From NCBI GenBank assembly GCA_902565325.1, contig CACFEM010000032.1, positions 1 through 9,316 of the forward strand: DNA of 9,316 nt, read 5' to 3'. The stretch is from an uncultured Pelagibacteraceae bacterium (lineage in GTDB: Bacteria; Pseudomonadota; Alphaproteobacteria; Pelagibacterales; Pelagibacteraceae). A program made the translations under genes and the position numbers. Below the pieces are notes generated by a model. That model saw only the letters and a list, made by a program, of their open reading frames with translations. It did not search any database and had not been told where the DNA came from. Each line of letters opens with the position of its first letter. Position 1 is the first letter of the stretch. Shown one piece after another: positions 1-9,316 of the stretch.

Positions 1-897
1 GCTGGCCCAAGTACATTTGCAAGATTACCTGAACTAAGAGATGTTGACAGTTGTGACGTTGCAATTGTTGGAATTCCGTTTGATGCTGGCACAAGTTATC
101 GACCCGGGGCAAGATTTGGTCCACAAAGCATCAGGCAAGCTTCTAGACATTTAAGAACTAATTATCATCCTAATTATGATGTTGAGCCTTTTAAAATCCA
201 ACAAGTAGCTGATGCTGGTGATATCGCTTGCAACCCATTTAGCATTGATGAAGCAATTGAACAAATAGAAGTAGGTGCAACAGATTTATTAAATAAGGTT
301 GGAGGAATTATAAGTTTAGGTGGAGATCATACTATTGCTGTTCCATTGTTAAGAGCAATCAATAAAAAAAATAAGGGCCCTGTATCTTTAGTTCATTTTG
401 ATGCGCACTTAGATACTTGGGACACATATTTTGGTGCACCTTATACTCACGGAACTCCATTCAGAAGAGCAAGAGAAGAAGGATTATTTTTAGATGATGC
501 TTCTATGCATGTTGGAATTCGAGGCCCACTTTATAGTAGAGATGATATTAAAAATGATGAAAGTTTTGGATTTAAAATAATTCATTGTGATGAGTTTCAA
601 ACAGAAGGAACCGATAAAATAGCAGAAAGAATAAGAAAAAGAGTGGGAGATAATCCTTTATACTTATCAATTGATATTGATGTTTTAGACCCTGCATTTG
701 CTCCAGGTACTGGTACACCAGAAATTGCAGGGATGACTACAAGAGAAATGGTAAATGTTTTAAGAGGTTTGTCTGGATTAAATTTAGTTTCAGCAGACGT
801 CGTTGAGGTTTCTCCAGCATATGATCATGCAGAAGTAACTTCTTTAGCAGCGGCAACTATTGTTTATGAATTAACTAATTTATTTGCAAAAACATAA
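1..897 (+). CDS. speB: Agmatinase / guanidino-acid ureohydrolase, 5' truncated by window edge
   Basis: Mn-dependent ureohydrolase of the arginase/agmatinase family, which releases urea from agmatine (giving putrescine) or from a related guanidino compound. The frame is open from base 1, giving 298 residues, so only about 10-25 N-terminal residues lie outside the window; the first internal Met at base 346 is not the start. The family metal-binding motifs are all visible: GGDHT (His110 of the fragment), HFDAHLD (Asp134, His136, Asp138) and SIDIDVLDP (Asp225, Asp227), followed by FAPGTGTPE and the C-terminal VVEVSPAYDHAE signature typical of agmatinases. The next gene, an aldehyde dehydrogenase, follows after 20 bp, so the two are probably co-transcribed for polyamine or guanidino-acid breakdown. 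Family assignment is secure. The exact substrate (agmatine versus 4-guanidinobutyrate or similar) cannot be fixed from motifs, because these subfamilies share the metal site. Confidence 0.92.
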   Translation, partial: AGPSTFARLPELRDVDSCDVAIVGIPFDAGTSYRPGARFGPQSIRQASRHLRTNYHPNYDVEPFKIQQVADAGDIACNPFSIDEAIEQIEVGATDLLNKVGGIISLGGDHTIAVPLLRAINKKNKGPVSLVHFDAHLDTWDTYFGAPYTHGTPFRRAREEGLFLDDASMHVGIRGPLYSRDDIKNDESFGFKIIHCDEFQTEGTDKIAERIRKRVGDNPLYLSIDIDVLDPAFAPGTGTPEIAGMTTREMVNVLRGLSGLNLVSADVVEVSPAYDHAEVTSLAAATIVYELTNLFAKT

Positions 898-899
898 AG

Positions 900-905
900 A
901 AAGGA
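900..905 (+). promoter_or_regulatory. Ribosome binding site for the aldehyde dehydrogenase
   Basis: AAAGGA lies 12 nt upstream of the ATG at 918, in the 20-bp gap after the agmatinase stop. It is one of the few recognisable Shine-Dalgarno sequences in this window and supports 918 as the start. Confidence 0.5.
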
Positions 906-917
906 TAACCTCAAAAC

Positions 918-2351
918 ATGTTAGACAAAAAAAATTTTTACATTAATGGCGCGTGGGTTAAGCCAAATAGCTCTGAGGAAATTAAAGTAATTGATCCTGC
1001 TACAGAAGAAAATTGTGCAGTAATCACTTTGGGAAACAAAGCTGATGTTGATAATGCTGTTAATGCAGCTAAAGATGCATATATGTCATGGGCCTTTTCT
1101 TCTAAAGAAGAAAGAATTGAATTATTAGAAAAACTTTATGAAAATTATAAGAAAAGATGGGCAGATATTGCAGAAGCTATAACTCTTGAAATGGGTGCTC
1201 CAAAAGATTTTGCAACAAAATTACAAGCAGGTACAGGAGCAAGTCATATCAAATCATTTATTAGATATTTAAAAAATTTTGAATTTGAAAAACCGTTAGG
1301 AGATCATGCTCCTAACCAAAGATTAATTTATGAACCAAAAGGTGTTTGTGCATTAATAACACCATGGAATTGGCCGATGAACCAAGTTTGTTTAAAAGTA
1401 ATGCCAGCAATAGCTGCAGGTTGTACAATGGTTTTAAAGCCATCAGAATTAGCACCACTCTCTTCAATGATACTTGCTGAAATTATTGATGAAGTAAAAT
1501 TTCCTAAAGGTGTGTTCAATTTAGTTAATGGTGATGGAGCAACAACAGGCGATGCTCTCACAAGTCATCCAGATATTAATATGATATCTTTTACTGGATC
1601 AACAAGAGCAGGAGCTTTGATTTCACAAAATGCTGCTAAAGATTTTAAAAGAGTAAGCTTAGAATTAGGAGGCAAGGGTGCAAATATAATTTTTAAAGAT
1701 GCTGATCCAGAGGCTATTGAAAGAGGTGCTTTAAGATGTTTTAGAAATTCTGGACAATCTTGTAATGCACCGACAAGAATGTTAGTTGAAAAATCAATGT
1801 ATAAAGAAGCTATTGAGAGATTAAAAAAATATACTGAAAGTTTTGAGGTGGGTGATCCTAAAAAAGAAGGAGAACATATAGGTCCAGTTATTTCAGAAAC
1901 TCAATACAAAAAAATACAAACTTTAATCCAAAAAGGAATAGATGAAGGTGCTAAATTAGTTGCTGGAGGGACAGGTAAACCTGATGGATTAGACAAAGGA
2001 TACTTTGTTAAACCAACTGTTTTTGCAGATGTAAATAATGATATGGAAGTTGCAAGAACAGAAATTTTTGGACCTGTTTTATCTGTTATTCCTTTTGAAA
2101 CAGAAGAAGATGCAATTAAAATTGCAAATGATACTGCTTATGGACTAACAAACTATATTCAAACCCAAGACTCTCAAAAAGTACAAAGAGTTGCAAGAAA
2201 ATTAAGATCTGGAATGGTTGATGTTAATGGAGCTGGTATTGCAGTTGATGCGCCTTTCGGTGGTTTTAAACATTCTGGAATAGGTCGAGAAGCCGGCGAA
2301 CACGGTTTAGAAGAGTTTTTAGAAGTAAAAGCTGTGGGTGGTTGGAGTTAA
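918..2351 (+). CDS. NAD(P)-dependent aldehyde dehydrogenase
   Basis: Full-length (477 aa) soluble member of the ALDH superfamily, which oxidises an aldehyde to its carboxylate with NAD(P)+. Landmarks in order: PWNWP with the oxyanion-hole Asn151, the cofactor Lys174 in LKPSE, FTGST (225-229) in the Rossmann fold, the general base Glu249 in LELGGKGAN, the catalytic Cys282 in SGQSCNAPTR, EIFGPVLS (382-389), and the C-terminal PFGGFKHSGIGREAGEHG oligomerisation region. All catalytic residues are present. It sits 20 bp after the agmatinase-type gene, so a substrate such as 4-aminobutyraldehyde or another amine-derived aldehyde is plausible, but this is inference from context; the sequence alone gives a broad ALDH call. 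The start is supported by AAAGGA upstream and the usual short N-terminus (xFYINGAWV). Its stop overlaps the stop of the convergent ArgE-like gene. Confidence 0.93.
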   Translation: MLDKKNFYINGAWVKPNSSEEIKVIDPATEENCAVITLGNKADVDNAVNAAKDAYMSWAFSSKEERIELLEKLYENYKKRWADIAEAITLEMGAPKDFATKLQAGTGASHIKSFIRYLKNFEFEKPLGDHAPNQRLIYEPKGVCALITPWNWPMNQVCLKVMPAIAAGCTMVLKPSELAPLSSMILAEIIDEVKFPKGVFNLVNGDGATTGDALTSHPDINMISFTGSTRAGALISQNAAKDFKRVSLELGGKGANIIFKDADPEAIERGALRCFRNSGQSCNAPTRMLVEKSMYKEAIERLKKYTESFEVGDPKKEGEHIGPVISETQYKKIQTLIQKGIDEGAKLVAGGTGKPDGLDKGYFVKPTVFADVNNDMEVARTEIFGPVLSVIPFETEEDAIKIANDTAYGLTNYIQTQDSQKVQRVARKLRSGMVDVNGAGIAVDAPFGGFKHSGIGREAGEHGLEEFLEVKAVGGWS

Positions 2352-3526
2352 TTTACTGATTTATCTTTCACACCTTCTAAAAATTTAAGGCACTTTTTCA
2401 TTTCATTTAATTCTATGAACTCGTCAATCTTGTGAGCTTGTTCTATGGATCCAGGTCCGCAAACAACAGTACTGATTCCTAATTCTTGAAATAAACCAGC
2501 CTCTGTTCCAAAAGAAACTACTTCTCTAGAATTATCACCAGTTATATTTGATACAAATTCACATGCTTCAGACTCATCTAATCTGTTAAAACCGACGACT
2601 TCACCTATTACTTCTTTTTTAATATAAGAATCTGGAAATACTCTTTTCATTTCTGGTAGGAGTACTTCATTTGCATATTTATCAATTTCATTCGTAACAA
2701 ATTCCCCGTCTTCTTTTACAACTGGTCTTGTTTCCCATTCAACACTGCATTTATCTGCAATGACATTATGAGCAATACCACCTTTAATTCCACCAATTGA
2801 TAAAGTTGAATGTGGAGGATCAAAAATACTATCTTTTTGAACTCTTTTTTTTAATTCTTCTCTAATTTCTAAAAGTTTTCCAACATATCTAGTAGCATAT
2901 TCAGCTGCATTTACTCCTAAATGTGGTTTAGAACTATGTCCTGCAAGTCCTCCAAAGTGAACTGTGTATTCATTCATACCTTTGTGGGCATCAATAATTT
3001 TCATTTTAGTTGGTTCACCAATTATACAAATTCCATTTTTGATTTCTCTTTTTTTCAATTCTTCTATTAGTAAAGGGGCTCCAATACATGCAGTCTCCTC
3101 ATCAAATGTGTAACAGAAATGTAAGTCTCTATCTAAATTACTTTCTTTGAAGATAGGCGCATAAGCAAGTGTACATGCAATAAAACCTTTCATATCACAT
3201 GAGCCTCTTCCATATAATTTATCATTTTTAATAGTTGCAACGAATGGATCACTGCTCCAACCTTTAGACACTGGAACCACATCAGTGTGTCCAGATAATA
3301 TGATGGGTTTTTTTGTGCTTTGATTTTTTGCTTTTAGAGTTCCAAAAAGATTAACTCTTTTTTTATCATCATCATAAACTTTGAAAGTATCTATTCCGAT
3401 GTTATTTAAAATTTTTTCACAATAATCAATTAAATTACTGTTGTCTTGACCTGAGACAGTTTTAAATGCGATTAAGTCAGTTAAAATCTTGATTGATTTT
3501 TCATATAAATTGTTATCTATACTCAT
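2348..3526 (-). CDS. argE: Acetylornithine deacetylase-like M20 metallopeptidase
   Basis: M20-family zinc hydrolase, 392 aa, close in length and motifs to ArgE, which removes the acetyl group from N-acetylornithine to give ornithine in arginine synthesis. Visible motifs: SGHTDVVPV (His80 metal ligand, Asp82), GRGSCDMKG (bridging Asp111), FDEETACIGA (catalytic Glu143/Glu144), GEPT (Glu171), the dimerisation-domain GHSSKPHLGVNA (196-207), GTEAGLFQ (340-347), and GPGSIEQAHKIDEFI with the final metal ligand His365. The whole metal set is intact. M20 relatives such as DapE or broad N-acyl-amino-acid deacylases look similar; GRGSCDMKG and GPGSIEQAHKIDEF favour ArgE. Next to an agmatinase and an aldehyde dehydrogenase, a role in another N-acyl or guanidino pathway is possible. 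The start at 3526 leaves only 24 bp to the divergent csaA-like gene; no clear Shine-Dalgarno is seen. Confidence 0.85.
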   Translation of the reverse strand: MSIDNNLYEKSIKILTDLIAFKTVSGQDNSNLIDYCEKILNNIGIDTFKVYDDDKKRVNLFGTLKAKNQSTKKPIILSGHTDVVPVSKGWSSDPFVATIKNDKLYGRGSCDMKGFIACTLAYAPIFKESNLDRDLHFCYTFDEETACIGAPLLIEELKKREIKNGICIIGEPTKMKIIDAHKGMNEYTVHFGGLAGHSSKPHLGVNAAEYATRYVGKLLEIREELKKRVQKDSIFDPPHSTLSIGGIKGGIAHNVIADKCSVEWETRPVVKEDGEFVTNEIDKYANEVLLPEMKRVFPDSYIKKEVIGEVVGFNRLDESEACEFVSNITGDNSREVVSFGTEAGLFQELGISTVVCGPGSIEQAHKIDEFIELNEMKKCLKFLEGVKDKSVN

Positions 3527-3550
3527 AAACTTAAAACACTATATTATATT
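3527..3550. promoter_or_regulatory. Compact divergent promoter region between argE and csaA
   Basis: The 24 bp between two divergent starts must carry, or adjoin, the promoters for both directions. It ends in a near-symmetrical AT tract, TATATTATATT, at 3540-3550. On the minus strand this contains a perfect -10 consensus, TATAAT (3548-3543), pointing toward argE; on the plus strand it contains TATATT (3540-3545), pointing toward csaA. No good -35 was found at 16-18 bp on either side, and any -35 would lie inside the opposite gene. Neither gene has a Shine-Dalgarno, so very short leaders are likely. Confidence 0.4.
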
Positions 3551-3895
3551 ATGATTAAAGAGCAAATTACCTATAATGATTTTGATAAAGTTGATATTAG
3601 AATTGGTACTGTAATTTCTGTAAAAAAAAATGAAAAAGCCAGAAAACCTTCATTAGTTATTGAAGTTGATTTTGGAAGCGAAATTGGCATTAAACAATCT
3701 TCAGCTCAAATTACTCATTATTATAATGAGGAGAATTTAAAAGGAAAACAAGTTATTGCTGTTTGTAATTTTCCTGAAAAAAATATTGCTGGAATAGTTT
3801 CTCAAGTATTGGTTTTAGGAGCAATTGATGCTGATGGTAAGGTTACACTTGTTCATCCCTCTCAAAAAGCAGAAAATGGATTACCGATCGCCTAG
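3551..3895 (+). CDS. csaA: CsaA-like tRNA-binding domain protein
   Basis: Small (114 aa) single-domain protein of the CsaA family, an OB-fold tRNA-binding domain like that at the end of some methionyl-tRNA synthetases. CsaA members form dimers and have been described as having chaperone-like, secretion-related activity; the precise role in this organism is unknown. Diagnostic stretches: FDKVDIRIG (11-19), ARKPS (30-34), DFGSEIGIKQSSAQI (40-54) and NFPEKNIAGIVSQVLVLG (73-90). Length matches the family (about 110 aa), so it is complete and not a synthetase fragment. It is the first gene of a plus-strand run and is followed after 2 bp by a LysE-type exporter. No Shine-Dalgarno precedes the ATG; the upstream bases are TATATTATATT. 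Confidence 0.9.
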   Translation: MIKEQITYNDFDKVDIRIGTVISVKKNEKARKPSLVIEVDFGSEIGIKQSSAQITHYYNEENLKGKQVIAVCNFPEKNIAGIVSQVLVLGAIDADGKVTLVHPSQKAENGLPIA

Positions 3896-3897
3896 TA

Positions 3898-4491
3898 ATG
3901 CATCCTGAAATTCTCTCTATAACTTTATTTGGAATAGTTGCTGCATTTACTCCTGGACCAAATAATTTCGTTGCTTTCTATTCTGGTTTCAATTTTGGTA
4001 TTCTTAGAACACTACCTCATATAATTGGTGTAACTTTAGGATTTCCTTTTTTATTATTATGTTTAGCTTTAGGGTTGATAAATATTTTTAAGCTTTATCC
4101 TTTAATTCAAGAGGTATTGAAATACTTAGGAACTCTATTTTTAATTTATTTAGCATACAAAATTTCTTTTTCAGGACCTTCTGATCAGGAAAATAAAAAT
4201 AAAAATCCAATTAAGTTTCATGAAACTTTTGTTTTTCAATTTTTAAATCCTAAAGGCGTTATTGCATCAATTATTCTTGTTTCAACTTACATTAATCCAG
4301 GAGAGACCTTTGTAAGTTATACGACTCAAATTATCATTATGGCTTTAATTGTTTCAGTGACTAGTATAACTCTGTGGACTTTTTTAGGTAAATTTTTCAG
4401 GAAATTTGCGACAAATCAGAAATTTATTAATTACTTTAATTATGCTATGTCACTGCTTCTTTTAACAAGCATAATAACTTTTTATTTATAA
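3898..4491 (+). CDS. LysE/RhtB-family amino-acid exporter
   Basis: Inner-membrane protein of 197 aa with about six hydrophobic segments (roughly 4-24, 38-62, 71-89, 110-133, 142-165 and 180-197), as expected for the LysE/RhtB superfamily, which exports amino acids such as lysine, homoserine, threonine or leucine. The two family marks are present: the N-terminal FTPGPNN (17-23) and the mid-protein FQFLNPKG (113-120). A charged Asn/Lys-rich loop (about 95-107) separates the halves. Substrate cannot be inferred. The gene starts 2 bp after the csaA stop and ends 1 bp before acnA, so translation is probably coupled along the run. Length is near the family norm (about 200-210 aa) and nothing appears to be missing. 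Confidence 0.88.
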   Translation: MHPEILSITLFGIVAAFTPGPNNFVAFYSGFNFGILRTLPHIIGVTLGFPFLLLCLALGLINIFKLYPLIQEVLKYLGTLFLIYLAYKISFSGPSDQENKNKNPIKFHETFVFQFLNPKGVIASIILVSTYINPGETFVSYTTQIIIMALIVSVTSITLWTFLGKFFRKFATNQKFINYFNYAMSLLLLTSIITFYL

Positions 4492-4492
4492 T

Positions 4493-7162
4493 ATGACCCC
4501 AGGAAACAAAAATTCTTATAAATCACTAAAAAAAATCACAGTTAATGACAAGGAGTATAATTATTACTCATTAAATGAAGCAGAAAAAAATGGACTTGAA
4601 GGAATAAATAAACTTCCAAAATCACTAAAAGTTTTACTAGAAAATTTATTAAGATACGAAGACGACTTAAGTGTAACGAAATCTCAAATAGAGGCGATTA
4701 AAAACTGGCTAAAGATAAAAAAATCTAAAACTGAAATTGCATATAGACCAGCAAGAGTTTTGCTTCAAGATTATACAGGAATACCTGCAGTTGCAGATTT
4801 AGCTGCAATGAGAGAAGCGGTTAAAGAAAAAAATAAAGATCCAAATACAATCAATCCACTGTCCGCAGTTGATCTTGTAATTGATCACTCTGTGCAAGTC
4901 GACCAATCCGCAAAAGCAGATTCTTTTGAAAAAAATGTTGATATAGAATTTGAAAGAAATGGTGAGAGATACTCTTTTTTAAAATGGGGACAGCAGGCAT
5001 TTGATAATTTTAGAATAGTTCCACCAGGAACAGGAATTTGTCACCAAGTAAATCTGGAATATTTGTCGAAGGTTGTTTGGTCAGAAGAATTTAAAGGTGA
5101 AAAATATCTTTTTCCAGATACTTTAGTTGGAACGGACAGTCATACAACTATGGTAAATGGTTTATCTGTTTTAGGATGGGGTGTTGGAGGAATTGAAGCT
5201 GAAGCAGGAATGTTAGGTCAACCAATTTCTATGTTAATACCAGAAGTCATCGGTTTTGAAATGAAAAACAAAATGCCAGAAGGAACTACTGCAACTGATT
5301 TAGTATTAACTGTTGTAAAAATGTTAAGAGATAAAGGAGTGGTTGGTAAGTTTGTTGAGTTTTATGGAGAAGGTTTAAAAAATTTAACACTGGCGGATAG
5401 AGCCACAATTGCAAACATGGCACCAGAATATGGTGCTACTTGTGGTTTTTTTCCTATCGATGAGGAAACATTAAAGTATTTAAAATTTTCTGGAAGAGAT
5501 CAACAAACTGTTGATATCGTAGAAAATTATGCCAAGGAACAAGGTTTATGGGCTAGTAACGAAATAGAATTTACTGACATTATATCTTTAGATATGTCCA
5601 CAGTCGTACCAACCATTTCAGGACCAAAAAGACCACAAGACAAAGTTCTTTTAACAGATGCACCTAGTTCATTTCAAAAAGTATTAGAGGAAGCTACAAA
5701 TAAAAATGAAAAATCAATTTCGAAAGTAACAAATACAGATTATGAAATTAAAGATGGTTCAATATTAATTGCAGCAATAACTTCTTGCACGAACACTTCA
5801 AATCCAAATGTATTAATTGGAGCTGGACTGTTAGCAAAAAAAGCTATTGAAAAAGATTTGCAGGTTAAACCCTGGGTAAAAACTTCTTTAGCACCTGGAT
5901 CTCAAGTAGTTACAGACTATTTGGCAAAAGCCGGATTAAATACTTATTTAGATCAGCTTGGCTTTAATTTGGTTGGGTATGGCTGTACAACTTGCATTGG
6001 AAATTCGGGACCACTTCCAGAAAATATTGTAGAAGCGATCCAAAAAGAAAATATTTATGCTGTTTCAGTTTTATCTGGAAATAGAAATTTTGAGGGAAGA
6101 ATTTCTCCACATATAAAAGCTAACTACCTAGCATCACCTCCACTAGTTGTTGCATATGCAATTGCTGGGCATATGGAAATTGATTTGTACAAAGATCCAT
6201 TAGGAAAAGATAGAGAAGGTAACGATGTGTTTTTAAAAGATATTTGGCCTTCAAATAAAGAGATAGAAGACACTTTAAAAGTTTCACTTAATGCTGAGAT
6301 GTTTATACAAAGATACTCAAATGTTTCTGAGGGCCCAACTCAATGGCAAAAAATTAAAACTGATAAAAGCAGTATCTATAATTGGGATGTGGGATCAACT
6401 TATGTAAAAAAACCTCCGTTTTTTGACTCGTTGCCAGATAAACCAGAAGGATTTAAAGAAATTAAGGATGCAAGACCATTATTAATTTTAGGTGATATGG
6501 TTACAACTGATCATATATCACCAGCCGGCAGTATTCAAAAAGATAGTCCAACTGGTGAATATTTTATGGAACACCAAATTTTACCTAAAGATTATAACTC
6601 ATATGGTTCAAGAAGAGGTAACCACGAAGTTATGATGCGAGGAACTTTTGCAAATATAAGGATTAGAAATGAAATGGCTCCTGGCACAGAAGGTGGTTTT
6701 ACGAAGTTATATCCAGAAGAAAAAGTTCTTCCTGTCTATGATGCAGTCGTTGAATATAAAAAAAGAGGAACAGATTTAGTTGTAATTGGTGGAAAAGAGT
6801 ATGGAACCGGATCCTCTAGGGATTGGGCAGCTAAAGGAACAAAATTACTTGGAATAAAAGTAGTAATTGCTGAGAGTTTTGAAAGAATTCACCGATCTAA
6901 TTTGATTGGAATGGGAATATTGCCATTACAATTTATTAATGATGTAAATAGAAAAAATTTAAAATTAATTGGTTCTGAGTTAATTAGTATTCTAAATATA
7001 GAAAAGGGCGTTAATCCCTCAGATGAAGTGATAGTCGAAATTAAATATGTTTCTGGAGAAATAAAGAAAATTAAAACTTTATGCAGAATTGATACAAAAA
7101 ATGAATTAGAGTATTATAAAAACGGAGGTATTCTGCAGTACGTTTTAAGGAATATGATTTAG
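4493..7162 (+). CDS. acnA: Aconitate hydratase A
   Basis: Aconitase of the AcnA/IRP1 class (889 aa, full length), which interconverts citrate and isocitrate via cis-aconitate in the TCA and glyoxylate cycles; cytoplasmic, with a [4Fe-4S] cluster. Cluster ligands are Cys432 (TSCTNTSNPNVLIGAG), Cys498 and Cys501 (GCTTCIGNSGP). Other active-site marks are DSHTTMVNGLSVLGWGVGG from Asp215, the swivel-domain TTDHISPAGSI, YGSRRGNHEVMMRGTFANIR, and YGTGSSRDWAAKG from Tyr770. All expected residues are intact. The ATG comes 1 bp after the exporter stop without a visible Shine-Dalgarno, which suggests coupled translation or a leaderless-type start. The N-terminus (Tyr-Lys-Ser-Leu then VNDKEYNYYSLNEAE) aligns with the usual AcnA beginning. 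It is followed after 2 bp by a membrane TPR-like gene. Very secure call. Confidence 0.98.
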   Translation: MTPGNKNSYKSLKKITVNDKEYNYYSLNEAEKNGLEGINKLPKSLKVLLENLLRYEDDLSVTKSQIEAIKNWLKIKKSKTEIAYRPARVLLQDYTGIPAVADLAAMREAVKEKNKDPNTINPLSAVDLVIDHSVQVDQSAKADSFEKNVDIEFERNGERYSFLKWGQQAFDNFRIVPPGTGICHQVNLEYLSKVVWSEEFKGEKYLFPDTLVGTDSHTTMVNGLSVLGWGVGGIEAEAGMLGQPISMLIPEVIGFEMKNKMPEGTTATDLVLTVVKMLRDKGVVGKFVEFYGEGLKNLTLADRATIANMAPEYGATCGFFPIDEETLKYLKFSGRDQQTVDIVENYAKEQGLWASNEIEFTDIISLDMSTVVPTISGPKRPQDKVLLTDAPSSFQKVLEEATNKNEKSISKVTNTDYEIKDGSILIAAITSCTNTSNPNVLIGAGLLAKKAIEKDLQVKPWVKTSLAPGSQVVTDYLAKAGLNTYLDQLGFNLVGYGCTTCIGNSGPLPENIVEAIQKENIYAVSVLSGNRNFEGRISPHIKANYLASPPLVVAYAIAGHMEIDLYKDPLGKDREGNDVFLKDIWPSNKEIEDTLKVSLNAEMFIQRYSNVSEGPTQWQKIKTDKSSIYNWDVGSTYVKKPPFFDSLPDKPEGFKEIKDARPLLILGDMVTTDHISPAGSIQKDSPTGEYFMEHQILPKDYNSYGSRRGNHEVMMRGTFANIRIRNEMAPGTEGGFTKLYPEEKVLPVYDAVVEYKKRGTDLVVIGGKEYGTGSSRDWAAKGTKLLGIKVVIAESFERIHRSNLIGMGILPLQFINDVNRKNLKLIGSELISILNIEKGVNPSDEVIVEIKYVSGEIKKIKTLCRIDTKNELEYYKNGGILQYVLRNMI
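7147..7152 (+). promoter_or_regulatory. Ribosome binding site for the TPR-like gene, inside acnA
   Basis: AAGGAA lies in the last codons of acnA, 12 nt before the ATG at 7165. It supports that start and fits a shared transcript. Confidence 0.4.
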
Positions 7163-7164
7163 TT

Positions 7165-7815
7165 ATGGATGAAGAATTATCAATTATAAACGCAAATGCT
7201 AGAAACGAAAAAATTAGAAATTTTTTTAAAAACAACAAAAATAAAATAATATTTGGAATAATAATCTTAGTAATTATTGTTACAGCCGTTTACAGCTTTG
7301 ACAAATACTTAACAAACAAAAAAAAAGAAATATCAGACAATTATAATTCAATAATTATAGAGTATTCAGATAATTCAAAAGATGAAACAGCAAATAAATT
7401 AATTGAAATTATAGGCAAAAAAGACCCAACTTATTCTCCATTATCATTATATTTTATTATCGATAATGATTTAGTTTCAGATAAAAAAGTTGTATTTAAT
7501 TTATTTAAAACAATAATTAATGATACATCTCTCGATAGAGAAATTAAAAATTTAGTTATCTATAAAAAAGCTTTATTTTATGCAGCTGAAATAGATGATA
7601 ACGAGAATGACTTGTTAAATATTTTAAATCCATTAATAAACTCTGAAAGTGTATGGAAATCACACGCATTATACTTAATGGGCGAGTATTATTTTTCAAA
7701 AAACCAAAAACAAAAAGCTAAAGAGTTTTATGAAAAAATTATTGCCTCAGAAAATACTAATCTTGATATTAATAAAGAAGTTCAAAAGAGATTAAATAGA
7801 GATTTTAGTGAATAA
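7165..7815 (+). CDS. Membrane-anchored TPR-like protein (YfgM/TPR_21 type)
   Basis: Protein of 216 aa with a short charged cytoplasmic N-terminus, one transmembrane helix at about 28-44 (IIFGIIILVIIVTAVYS) and a helical, highly charged remainder that probably lies in the periplasm. Residues about 165-193 (ALYLMGEYYFSKNQKQKAKEFYEKII) read as one clear TPR-like helix pair; earlier repeats are degenerate. This architecture and length match YfgM-type TPR_21 proteins, which are linked to SecYEG and periplasmic chaperones in E. coli. In many Proteobacteria such a gene is followed by bamB and der. Here the next ORF does begin as a lipoprotein, overlapping this gene by 8 bp, but it does not continue as BamB. 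Very AT-rich with many Asn/Lys codons, as are its neighbours. Family assignment rests on architecture and synteny, since no catalytic motif exists. Confidence 0.7.
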   Translation: MDEELSIINANARNEKIRNFFKNNKNKIIFGIIILVIIVTAVYSFDKYLTNKKKEISDNYNSIIIEYSDNSKDETANKLIEIIGKKDPTYSPLSLYFIIDNDLVSDKKVVFNLFKTIINDTSLDREIKNLVIYKKALFYAAEIDDNENDLLNILNPLINSESVWKSHALYLMGEYYFSKNQKQKAKEFYEKIIASENTNLDINKEVQKRLNRDFSE

Positions 7816-7855
7816 GATTATATTTTTATTTGTTTTATTTTTTTTAACAGGATGT
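7808..7855 (+). other. Lipoprotein signal peptide with lipobox
   Basis: Residues 1-16 of the chimeric ORF: Asn-Lys at the N-terminus, a hydrophobic Ile/Phe/Leu/Val core, then LTGC with the lipidated Cys at 7853-7855. A cytosolic photolyase has no such leader, so this segment belongs to a different protein. By position after a YfgM-like gene, BamB is the best guess. Confidence 0.8.
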
Positions 7856-8659
7856 TCACTCAACAAAAACTCTAAATTTTGGTCAACATCAGAAACACTT
7901 AATCAAGAAACAAAGAATACAAACTCATCTATCGAAGGAACATCTAAATTATCCCCTTATATCAAACATGGCCAAATTCATGTAGAGAGTATTTGGAAAA
8001 AATGTTCTGAAATTAAATCAAAAGGAACTGGTTATAGAAAATATATTAATGAACTTGGTTGGAGAGAGTTTTCACATAGTTTAATTAATTATTTCCCAGA
8101 ATTCTTAAAAGGAAATTTTAGAAAGGAATTTGATAAATTCCCTTGGGCAAAAAACGAGAAATTCTTAAAAGCATGGAAAAGAGGAATGACCGGTTATCCT
8201 ATTGTCGATGCAGGTATGAGAGAACTATATGAGACTGGATGGATGCATAACAGAATAAGAATGGTTGTTGGTTCATTTTTAGTCAAACATTTGAGAATTA
8301 ATTGGACTGAAGGTGAGAAGCATTTTAGAAATTGTCTACTAGATTTTAACAAAGCGAATAATGTTGCTCAATGGCAATGGGTTGCTGGCTGTGGTGCAGA
8401 TGCAGCACCTTATTTTAGAATATTCAATCCAATACTTCAGGGTGAAAAATTTGATAAACAAGGTAATTATGTAAAAAAATGGGTTCCTGAACTTAAAAAT
8501 GTTCCAAATAAATTTATCCATAAACCATGGGAAATGGAATTAAAGTATCAAGAAGCTATAAAAACAATTATTGGCAAAGATTATCCAGGCCCTATTGTTG
8601 TTCATGAAAAAGCTAGAGCTGCAGCTCTTGAAGCGTTTCAATCTTTGAAGAAAAAATAA
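7808..8659 (+). CDS. phrB: Chimeric ORF: lipoprotein (BamB-like) N-terminus fused to FAD domain of DNA photolyase
   Basis: 283-aa ORF with two unrelated parts. Residues 1-16 are a lipoprotein signal peptide (short basic start, FLFVLFF core, lipobox LTGC with Cys16; Ser at +2 suggests the outer membrane). A polar stretch to about residue 38 follows, as in a BamB N-terminus. From about residue 41 it is class I CPD photolyase: TSKLS (45-49, FAD phosphate contact), GWREF (84-88, substrate side), AWKRGMTGYPIVDAGMREL (122-140), GWMHNRIRMVVGSFLVK (144-160), INWTEGE (164-170), and QWQWVAGCGADAAPYFRIFNP (188-208). It ends at the normal photolyase C-terminus. The electron-transfer Trp triad appears retained (Trp123, Trp166, and Trp191 or Trp189). 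Missing are the roughly 200-residue N-terminal antenna domain and the flavin-contact Tyr before TSKLS. Family length is about 470 aa. The GTG start lies inside the preceding gene. Most likely a non-functional fusion (deletion or assembly chimera); the photolyase identity is certain. Confidence 0.85.
   Translation: MNKIIFLFVLFFLTGCSLNKNSKFWSTSETLNQETKNTNSSIEGTSKLSPYIKHGQIHVESIWKKCSEIKSKGTGYRKYINELGWREFSHSLINYFPEFLKGNFRKEFDKFPWAKNEKFLKAWKRGMTGYPIVDAGMRELYETGWMHNRIRMVVGSFLVKHLRINWTEGEKHFRNCLLDFNKANNVAQWQWVAGCGADAAPYFRIFNPILQGEKFDKQGNYVKKWVPELKNVPNKFIHKPWEMELKYQEAIKTIIGKDYPGPIVVHEKARAAALEAFQSLKKK
7896..7931 (+). other. Inferred fusion breakpoint between lipoprotein and photolyase sequence
   Basis: Within residues about 30-41 of the ORF the sequence passes from a polar lipoprotein linker to the conserved photolyase lead-in (SIEGTSKLSPY). 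The frame is kept and no stop or repeat marks the join. The tract is A-rich, so a few bases of shared sequence could have served as the joining point, but without the parent genes the exact base cannot be set. Confidence 0.6.
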
Positions 8660-8664
8660 ATTTA

Positions 8665-8684
8665 ATTTTATTCTCCAATAAAAT
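8665..8684. terminator. AT-only hairpin at the convergent gene ends, possible weak bidirectional terminator
   Basis: A perfect 8-bp inverted repeat (ATTTTATT at 8665-8672, AATAAAAT at 8677-8684) with loop CTCC lies where the photolyase-type ORF and yjbQ converge, 8 bp apart. It covers the last codons and stop of yjbQ. The stem has no G-C pairs, so termination would be weak; T-rich DNA follows in the plus direction (TTCTTTTTTG, about 8698-8707) and A/T-rich DNA in the minus direction. Confidence 0.3.
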
Positions 8685-9087
8685 GATGAATTATTGTTCT
8701 TTTTTGAGCTTCTAATCTGTGTTCAAATAAATATATGCCCTGCCAAGTTCCAAGCAACAATTCACTATCTTTCACGCTTAGAGAAATTTGATTATTTGTT
8801 AATGCGGATTTAATATGTGCGGGCATATCATCTTTTCCCTCTGTAGTATGAACATATAGTTTGTTATCCATAGGAGCTAATTTATCAAAAAAATTTATTA
8901 AATCTGTTTGTACATCTGGATCTGCATTTTCTTGAACAATTAATGAGGCGCTTGTGTGCTGAATATTTAAGTTAAGAATACCATTTTTAAAGTTATTTTG
9001 ACCAATCCAATGAATTGTATCATTAGTAAATTCATATAACTTTTGACCATTAGTCTTAATTTGAAGATTGTAAAATTCTTGTTTCAT
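8668..9087 (-). CDS. yjbQ: YjbQ-family protein (UPF0047)
   Basis: Complete 139-aa member of the YjbQ/UPF0047 family. Some members have been reported to have weak thiamine-phosphate synthase activity, but the physiological role is unsettled. The family signature is unmistakable: HTSASL (44-49), QENADPDV (52-59), HTTEGKDDMPAHIKS (80-94) and LGTWQGIYLFEHR (112-124). The conserved His and Asp residues sit where the family's trimeric metal/anion site is expected. Length is normal (about 135-145 aa). The start is well fixed: its ATG overlaps the stop of the upstream zapE-like gene as TAATG, and a perfect AAGGAG lies 8 nt upstream. It converges on the photolyase-type ORF with 8 bp between stops. Confidence 0.93.
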   Translation of the reverse strand: MKQEFYNLQIKTNGQKLYEFTNDTIHWIGQNNFKNGILNLNIQHTSASLIVQENADPDVQTDLINFFDKLAPMDNKLYVHTTEGKDDMPAHIKSALTNNQISLSVKDSELLLGTWQGIYLFEHRLEAQKRTIIHHFIGE

Positions 9088-9316
9088 TAATTATGCTCCT
9101 TCGATGTAAGCTCATACAAACGACTAATGGTTCGTTTAAATGGTTTTTCTAACAATCTTGAAGAGGTAAATTGATCTAAATTTAGATCAGCTGTCACTGC
9201 TAATGAAATATTTTTATCATAAATTACATCTAACAAAGTGATAAAACGTCGTTGTTGATTTGAATTCACATCATTAAATTGAGGTATTTGATCTATTACC
9301 ATAAATTTACAGTTTT
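9087..9316 (-). CDS. zapE: C-terminal fragment of ZapE/AFG1-family ATPase, cut by window end
   Basis: The frame is open to the last base of the window, giving about 75 residues; the internal Met at 9302 is not the start. The fragment matches the C-terminal third of the AFG1-like P-loop ATPase family (ZapE in bacteria, linked to cell division and Z-ring stability; AFG1/LACE1 in mitochondria). Visible: FMVIDQIPQF (Walker B-side strand and loop), QQRRFITLLDVIYDKNISLAVTA (RRF-LID-YD motif and sensor-like strand), and FKRTISRLYELTS, the family's RT-SRL-EM ending. The typical DD of the Walker B region reads ID here, so the family's usual VFIDDIP is VIDQIP, a small deviation. Walker A lies outside the window. 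Ends in a stop shared with the yjbQ start. Confidence 0.82.
   Translation of the reverse strand, partial: NCKFMVIDQIPQFNDVNSNQQRRFITLLDVIYDKNISLAVTADLNLDQFTSSRLLEKPFKRTISRLYELTSKEHN
9096..9101 (-). promoter_or_regulatory. Shine-Dalgarno of yjbQ, embedded in the zapE 3' end
   Basis: AAGGAG, the strongest ribosome binding site in the window, is formed by the Lys and Glu codons near the zapE C-terminus (Ser-Lys-Glu-His-Asn-stop) and sits 8 nt before the yjbQ ATG. Together with the TAATG overlap it indicates co-transcription and translational coupling of the two genes. Confidence 0.65.

What the first reader, a model, noticed from the sequence alone, without database searches (positions are those of the whole stretch)
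7808..8659. In-frame fusion of a lipoprotein leader to the FAD domain of a DNA photolyase
Seen directly: an LTGC lipobox at residues 13-16, then class I photolyase motifs from TSKLS (45-49) to the natural C-terminus, in one ORF with no stop. Known: photolyases are cytosolic or nuclear proteins of about 470 aa with an N-terminal antenna domain, while lipobox proteins are exported. Inference: two genes were joined by a deletion, or the assembly is chimeric. If real, it records loss of photolyase and of the lipoprotein (probably BamB) in one event, which is notable in a streamlined marine genome. If artefactual, it should be flagged so that a 'lipid-anchored photolyase' family is not created.
Basis: partly seen in the sequence, partly recalled or inferred. 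Interest (0 to 1): 0.7.

Follow-up and report, generated by a model that had tools for sequence, protein, structure and literature searches.

The report
Inverted chimeric join mimicking gene fusion
The apparent 'lipid-anchored photolyase' is the start of one SAR11 gene joined to the end of a nearby gene that normally points the other way, most likely an amplification artefact rather than a real protein.

Summary
The ORF at 7808-8659 exists as described: about 41 residues of a BamB-like lipoprotein, then the C-terminal FAD domain of a photolyase, in one frame. It is not a deletion fusion. In 67 of 67 relative loci that hold both parts (81 examined; in the other 14 the contig ends too early), photolyase and bamB lie on opposite strands: phr>, <yjbQ, <zapE, <143-aa ORF, <bamB, <TPR, <acnA. 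Window 1-7931 maps to one strand and 7926-9316 to the other, with breakpoints about 3.83 kb apart in L081, joined at a shared 6-mer (7926-7931). That is the published form of a multiple-displacement-amplification (MDA) chimera: inverted, under 10 kb apart, short complementarity. No match crossed the junction in 399 genomes of the genus, and none of the 240 best-ranked proteins from two searches of 5.8 billion clustered proteins carries both halves. The photolyase half shows undisturbed purifying selection, so the join is very young or artificial. A real 3.8-kb inversion is not excluded: the window ends inside zapE, before the second breakpoint, and reads and sample history are unavailable. Verdict: most likely a physical chimera; no protein family should be made from it.

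The parts
1..7931 (+). Left segment: agmatinase (5' cut), aldehyde dehydrogenase, acetylornithine deacetylase-like (-), CsaA-like tRNA-binding protein, LysE/RhtB-type exporter-like protein, aconitase AcnA, TPR protein, bamB 5' end; collinear with relatives but on the opposite strand to the right segment
   Evidence: blastn to L081: 1-7931 on the minus strand, 92.0% identity; gene names
7808..8659 (+). Fused ORF, 283 aa, the feature reported
7808..7931 (+). 5' end of a BamB-like lipoprotein gene (signal peptide, LTGC lipobox)
7926..7931 (+). Junction: 6 bases (CATCTA) common to the bamB side (L081, L040) and the phr side (L002 and others)
7926..8659 (+). 3' part of the photolyase gene phr (FAD-binding domain)
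8668..9087 (-). yjbQ (UPF0047), normal neighbour of phr
9087..9314 (-). zapE (AFG1-like ATPase), C-terminal 75 residues; the window ends here

Best explanation
A physical chimera made in vitro, most likely by multiple displacement amplification (MDA) or another strand-displacing amplification. A strand being copied through bamB was displaced, its 3' end annealed through CATCTA to a single strand carrying phr about 3.8 kb away, and synthesis went on along that strand in the inverted direction. The open frame arose by the 1-in-3 chance. The cell of origin probably has an intact bamB and an intact phr, and no fused protein exists. Shown: the inverted arrangement, the distance, the microhomology and the absence of relatives. 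Inferred: that it happened in vitro, and by MDA.
For: 67 of 67 informative loci have the two parts on opposite strands, with phr-probe to acnA-probe spacing of 3844-3879 bp. Breakpoints lie about 3.83 kb apart in L081, with a 6-nt shared sequence; a random join of these two genes gives 6 or more shared bases with probability 0.006-0.007. In Lasken and Stockwell 2007 (PMC1855051, Results section read) 406 of 475 MDA chimeras were inverted, 337 of those 406 under 10 kb apart, and 93.5% of these showed complementarity of at least 2 bp. No match at E<=1e-15 crosses the junction in 399 genomes; both halves on one contig but opposite strands in the two genomes that match both (G002, G027). 0 of 240 fetched proteins carry both halves. 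The photolyase part has pN/pS 0.06-0.11 against its ten closest loci, so no decay. Other one-off joins of the same bamB leader occur in short contigs (P0154 to Peptidase_M23, P0151 to an Sdh_cyt start).
Against: No reads, sample or preparation history; no genome held. Among the 81 loci, many of them single-cell assemblies by their titles, none has an inverted piece of 250 bp or more against L002 or L016 in this neighbourhood, so such chimeras rarely survive assembly there. A contig that reached 9.3 kb with the join in it needed enough reads to be assembled. Microhomology also fits a natural rearrangement. The best relatives of the two sides differ (L081/L040 left, L016/L020 right), which fits recombination among SAR11 strains as well as a cross-strain join.
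Confidence: 0.8

Rival explanations
1. A real, very recent inversion of about 3.8 kb between bamB and phr in one SAR11 strain. It would break both genes and leave a reciprocal phr-5'/bamB-3' fusion at the other end.
For: A single inversion yields exactly this junction, and the 6-bp inverted match could mediate it. The window ends about 1.39 kb after the junction, inside zapE, so the second breakpoint is out of view.
Against: Not seen in 67 of 67 informative loci or as a crossing match in 399 genomes. SAR11 gene order matches HTCC1062 in 96% of over 85,000 observations and rearrangements are most frequent at operon boundaries (PMC2217521, passages), while this join cuts two genes. pN/pS of 0.06-0.11 shows no relaxation, so it would have to be very young. 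It would destroy photolyase and BamB at once.
Confidence: 0.14
2. An assembler or library mis-join between two strains, without strand-displacing amplification.
For: The two sides have different best relatives. Two other unrelated joins of the bamB leader exist on contigs of 817 and 1089 bp.
Against: Only 6 shared bases, too short for an assembler's usual word overlap (my knowledge). A random ligation would not favour the same 3.8-kb neighbourhood in inverted orientation.
Confidence: 0.05
3. A functional, lipid-anchored periplasmic FAD protein.
For: Open frame with an LTGC lipobox and a complete FAD_binding_7 match.
Against: No second example, no antenna domain, and the leader's native partner is an intact 437-aa BamB-like protein.
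Confidence: 0.01

Closest known systems
MDA chimeras (Lasken and Stockwell 2007, PMC1855051)
   Same: Inverted joining of two segments under 10 kb apart, with a short complementary stretch at the junction and the intervening piece skipped
   Different: Amplification history of this sample is unknown; this is one junction in an assembled contig, theirs were in reads
SAR11 class I photolyase (473 aa, e.g. P0002 and L040 4283-5704)
   Same: About 243 C-terminal residues, 98-99% identical to the closest; FAD_binding_7 complete
   Different: The first 230 or so residues, with the PF00875 antenna domain, are missing
SAR11 BamB-like PQQ lipoprotein (437 aa, e.g. P0125, L040 7618-8931)
   Same: First 41 residues, up to 95% identity
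   Different: The beta-propeller (PQQ_2) is missing

Membership tests
MDA chimera | Two segments joined in inverted orientation relative to the genome | tested here: met
   67 of 67 informative loci
MDA chimera | Segments close together (under 10 kb) | tested here: met
   About 3.83 kb in L081 and L040
MDA chimera | Complementary bases at the junction (2-21 nt in the reference study) | tested here: met
   6 nt, CATCTA; random expectation 0.006-0.007
MDA chimera | Absent from the unamplified genome; sample was amplified | not testable with these tools
   No genome held; no reads or sample history
Class I CPD photolyase | FAD-binding domain PF03441 | tested here: met
Class I CPD photolyase | N-terminal antenna domain PF00875 | tested here: not met
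   No hit; the intact relative L040 has it
BamB | PQQ beta-propeller | tested here: not met
   Absent from the fused ORF; present in intact relatives P0122 and L040
Natural inversion | Reciprocal second junction in the same genome | not testable with these tools
   The window ends inside zapE, before the place where it would lie

The most novel reading that the evidence does not exclude
A real, very recent 3.8-kb inversion in a SAR11 strain that inactivated photolyase and a BamB-like lipoprotein in one event and may still express a membrane-targeted FAD domain.
Probability: 0.13. Interest if true: 0.35.

Novelty: not a real feature. Interest (0 to 1): 0.08.

Why it matters
It removes a false 'lipid-anchored photolyase' before it enters a protein family or an annotation pipeline. 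It also gives a practical check for such cases: if the two halves of an apparent fusion lie on opposite strands a few kilobases apart in relatives, with a short shared sequence at the join, an amplification chimera should be suspected first. If the inversion were real it would be a rare double knock-out in a streamlined sunlit-ocean genome.

Tried and rejected
Deletion fusion: rejected, since the genes are on opposite strands in 67 of 67 informative loci. A recurrent fused family: rejected. The truncated 329-aa entries P0004 and P0034 start inside the photolyase (MFTPFW) and lack the leader, so they are not second examples. (28-base pattern in 399 genomes, 30 with a match) used right-side sequence only and says nothing about the junction. 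One search (29-base junction pattern in viral contigs) found 0, little informative for a cellular contig. Dating by decay: the pN/pS counts show no relaxation but cannot tell an artefact from a very recent event. One-strain test: best relatives differ along the window, but SAR11 alleles mix along the left side too, so it decides nothing. Looking for inverted chimeras in the fetched loci as a control gave 0 of 81, which counts somewhat against a high base rate. The paper search (five terms) gave 0 papers.

Full report
What is there. The 283-aa ORF at 7808-8659 is open from a GTG start. Its residues 80-278 cover 2-202 of the 203 positions of FAD_binding_7, and it aligns to PRK10674 only from position 223 on. 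In the listing (best 120 of 7999 scored) the hits are photolyases, mostly of 473 aa, covering 86-89% of the query, with a top score of 567 bits. A protein with both halves should have scored higher and none is listed. A search with residues 1-41 alone (142 hits, 120 listed) finds mainly 437-aa BamB-like lipoproteins, the best full-length ones 95% identical over the 41 residues. Of the 240 proteins fetched by the two searches, none carries both a leader motif and a photolyase motif. Because the protein collection is clustered at 90% identity, a fused member could hide inside a cluster.

Where the parts lie in relatives. I fetched 80 loci from the genome collection (521 stretches encoded a relative, the best 80 kept), and later L081, chosen because its genome matched both halves. 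Probes for the acnA end and the phr end are both present in 67 of these 81 loci, and in 67 of 67 the acnA probe is on the strand opposite to phr. The distance between the probes is 3844-3879 bp, median 3861. In the other 14 loci the contig ends before that distance (lengths, positions). L040 shows the order: a PALP enzyme and phr forward, then yjbQ, zapE, an unnamed 143-aa ORF, bamB-like, TPR and acnA backward. L002 and L081 show ORFs of matching or nearly matching sizes in the same order and strands. The bamB-like protein passes Pfam's PQQ_2 cut-off but stays below NCBIfam's BamB equivalog cut-offs, hence 'BamB-like'.

The junction. In L081 the window's bases 1-7931 align without interruption to the minus strand (92.0%) and 7926-9316 to the plus strand (87.1%); the breakpoints are 5330 and 1499, 3.83 kb apart. 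The bamB side of L081 and L040 and the phr side of L002 share CATCTA with the window at 7926-7931 (some phr relatives such as L016 share only TCTA). Random joins of the two genes have 6 or more such bases in 0.6-0.7% of trials and are in frame in one third. No alignment in the 81 loci crosses the junction. In 399 genomes of the genus, 99 match the 200-base junction query at E<=1e-15; every listed match ends or begins at the junction. The two genomes that match both halves (G002, G027) have them on opposite strands of one contig (only the two best candidates per genome were scored).

Interpretation. Two genes on opposite strands cannot be joined in this way by a deletion. An inversion or an inverted chimera is required. 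Lasken and Stockwell (PMC1855051; passages and the Results section read) describe MDA chimeras as inverted in 406 of 475 cases, 337 of these 406 under 10 kb apart, with complementary bases in 93.5% of such cases, and 495 chimeras in 10.9 million read bases. This junction has each of these features. A six-base overlap is too short for an assembler to invent the join by itself (my knowledge), so real chimeric molecules were probably sequenced. Two further one-off joins of the same leader, P0154 (to a Peptidase_M23 domain, 817-bp contig) and P0151 (after an Sdh_cyt start, 1089-bp contig), show that artificial-looking joins occur in these collections, though how they arose was not tested.

Against this reading. 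The preparation of the sample is unknown and no genome is held. In the 81 loci no inverted piece of 250 bp or more was found against L002 or L016, so assembled chimeras of this kind are uncommon in comparable data. One inversion would give the same junction, and the window stops inside zapE before the second breakpoint. What lowers the inversion: conserved gene order in SAR11 (96% of over 85,000 observations, with rearrangements favouring operon boundaries; PMC2217521, passages only), its absence here from 67 of 67 loci, and the photolyase part's pN/pS of 0.06-0.11 against its ten closest loci. The last only says that the join is very young or not real. I put 0.8 on an amplification chimera, 0.14 on a real recent inversion, 0.05 on another mis-join and 0.01 on a working anchored protein.

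Noticed in passing
P0154 and P0151: Two other one-off joins involving the same bamB 5' region: to a Peptidase_M23 domain on an 817-bp contig, and after an Sdh_cyt start on a 1089-bp contig; probably chimeras too.
   Followed up: partly
window 7301-7931: The TPR/bamB 5' stretch is a strongly divergent allele: among the fetched loci the best matches are L081 (about 95%) and L040 (about 90%), while the next best are 74-78%, although neighbouring acnA is 95% or more to many.
   Followed up: partly
L040 7187-7618, also in L002 and L081: A conserved 143-aa ORF between zapE and bamB has no Pfam or NCBIfam hit (L040 copy); by eye it has a histidine-containing cupin-like stretch.
   Followed up: no
window 7979-7996: Residue E follows KHGQIHV in the window; the 81 loci show S (39), G (38), D (3) or N (1) there. 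It lies about 55 bases from the junction.
   Followed up: no
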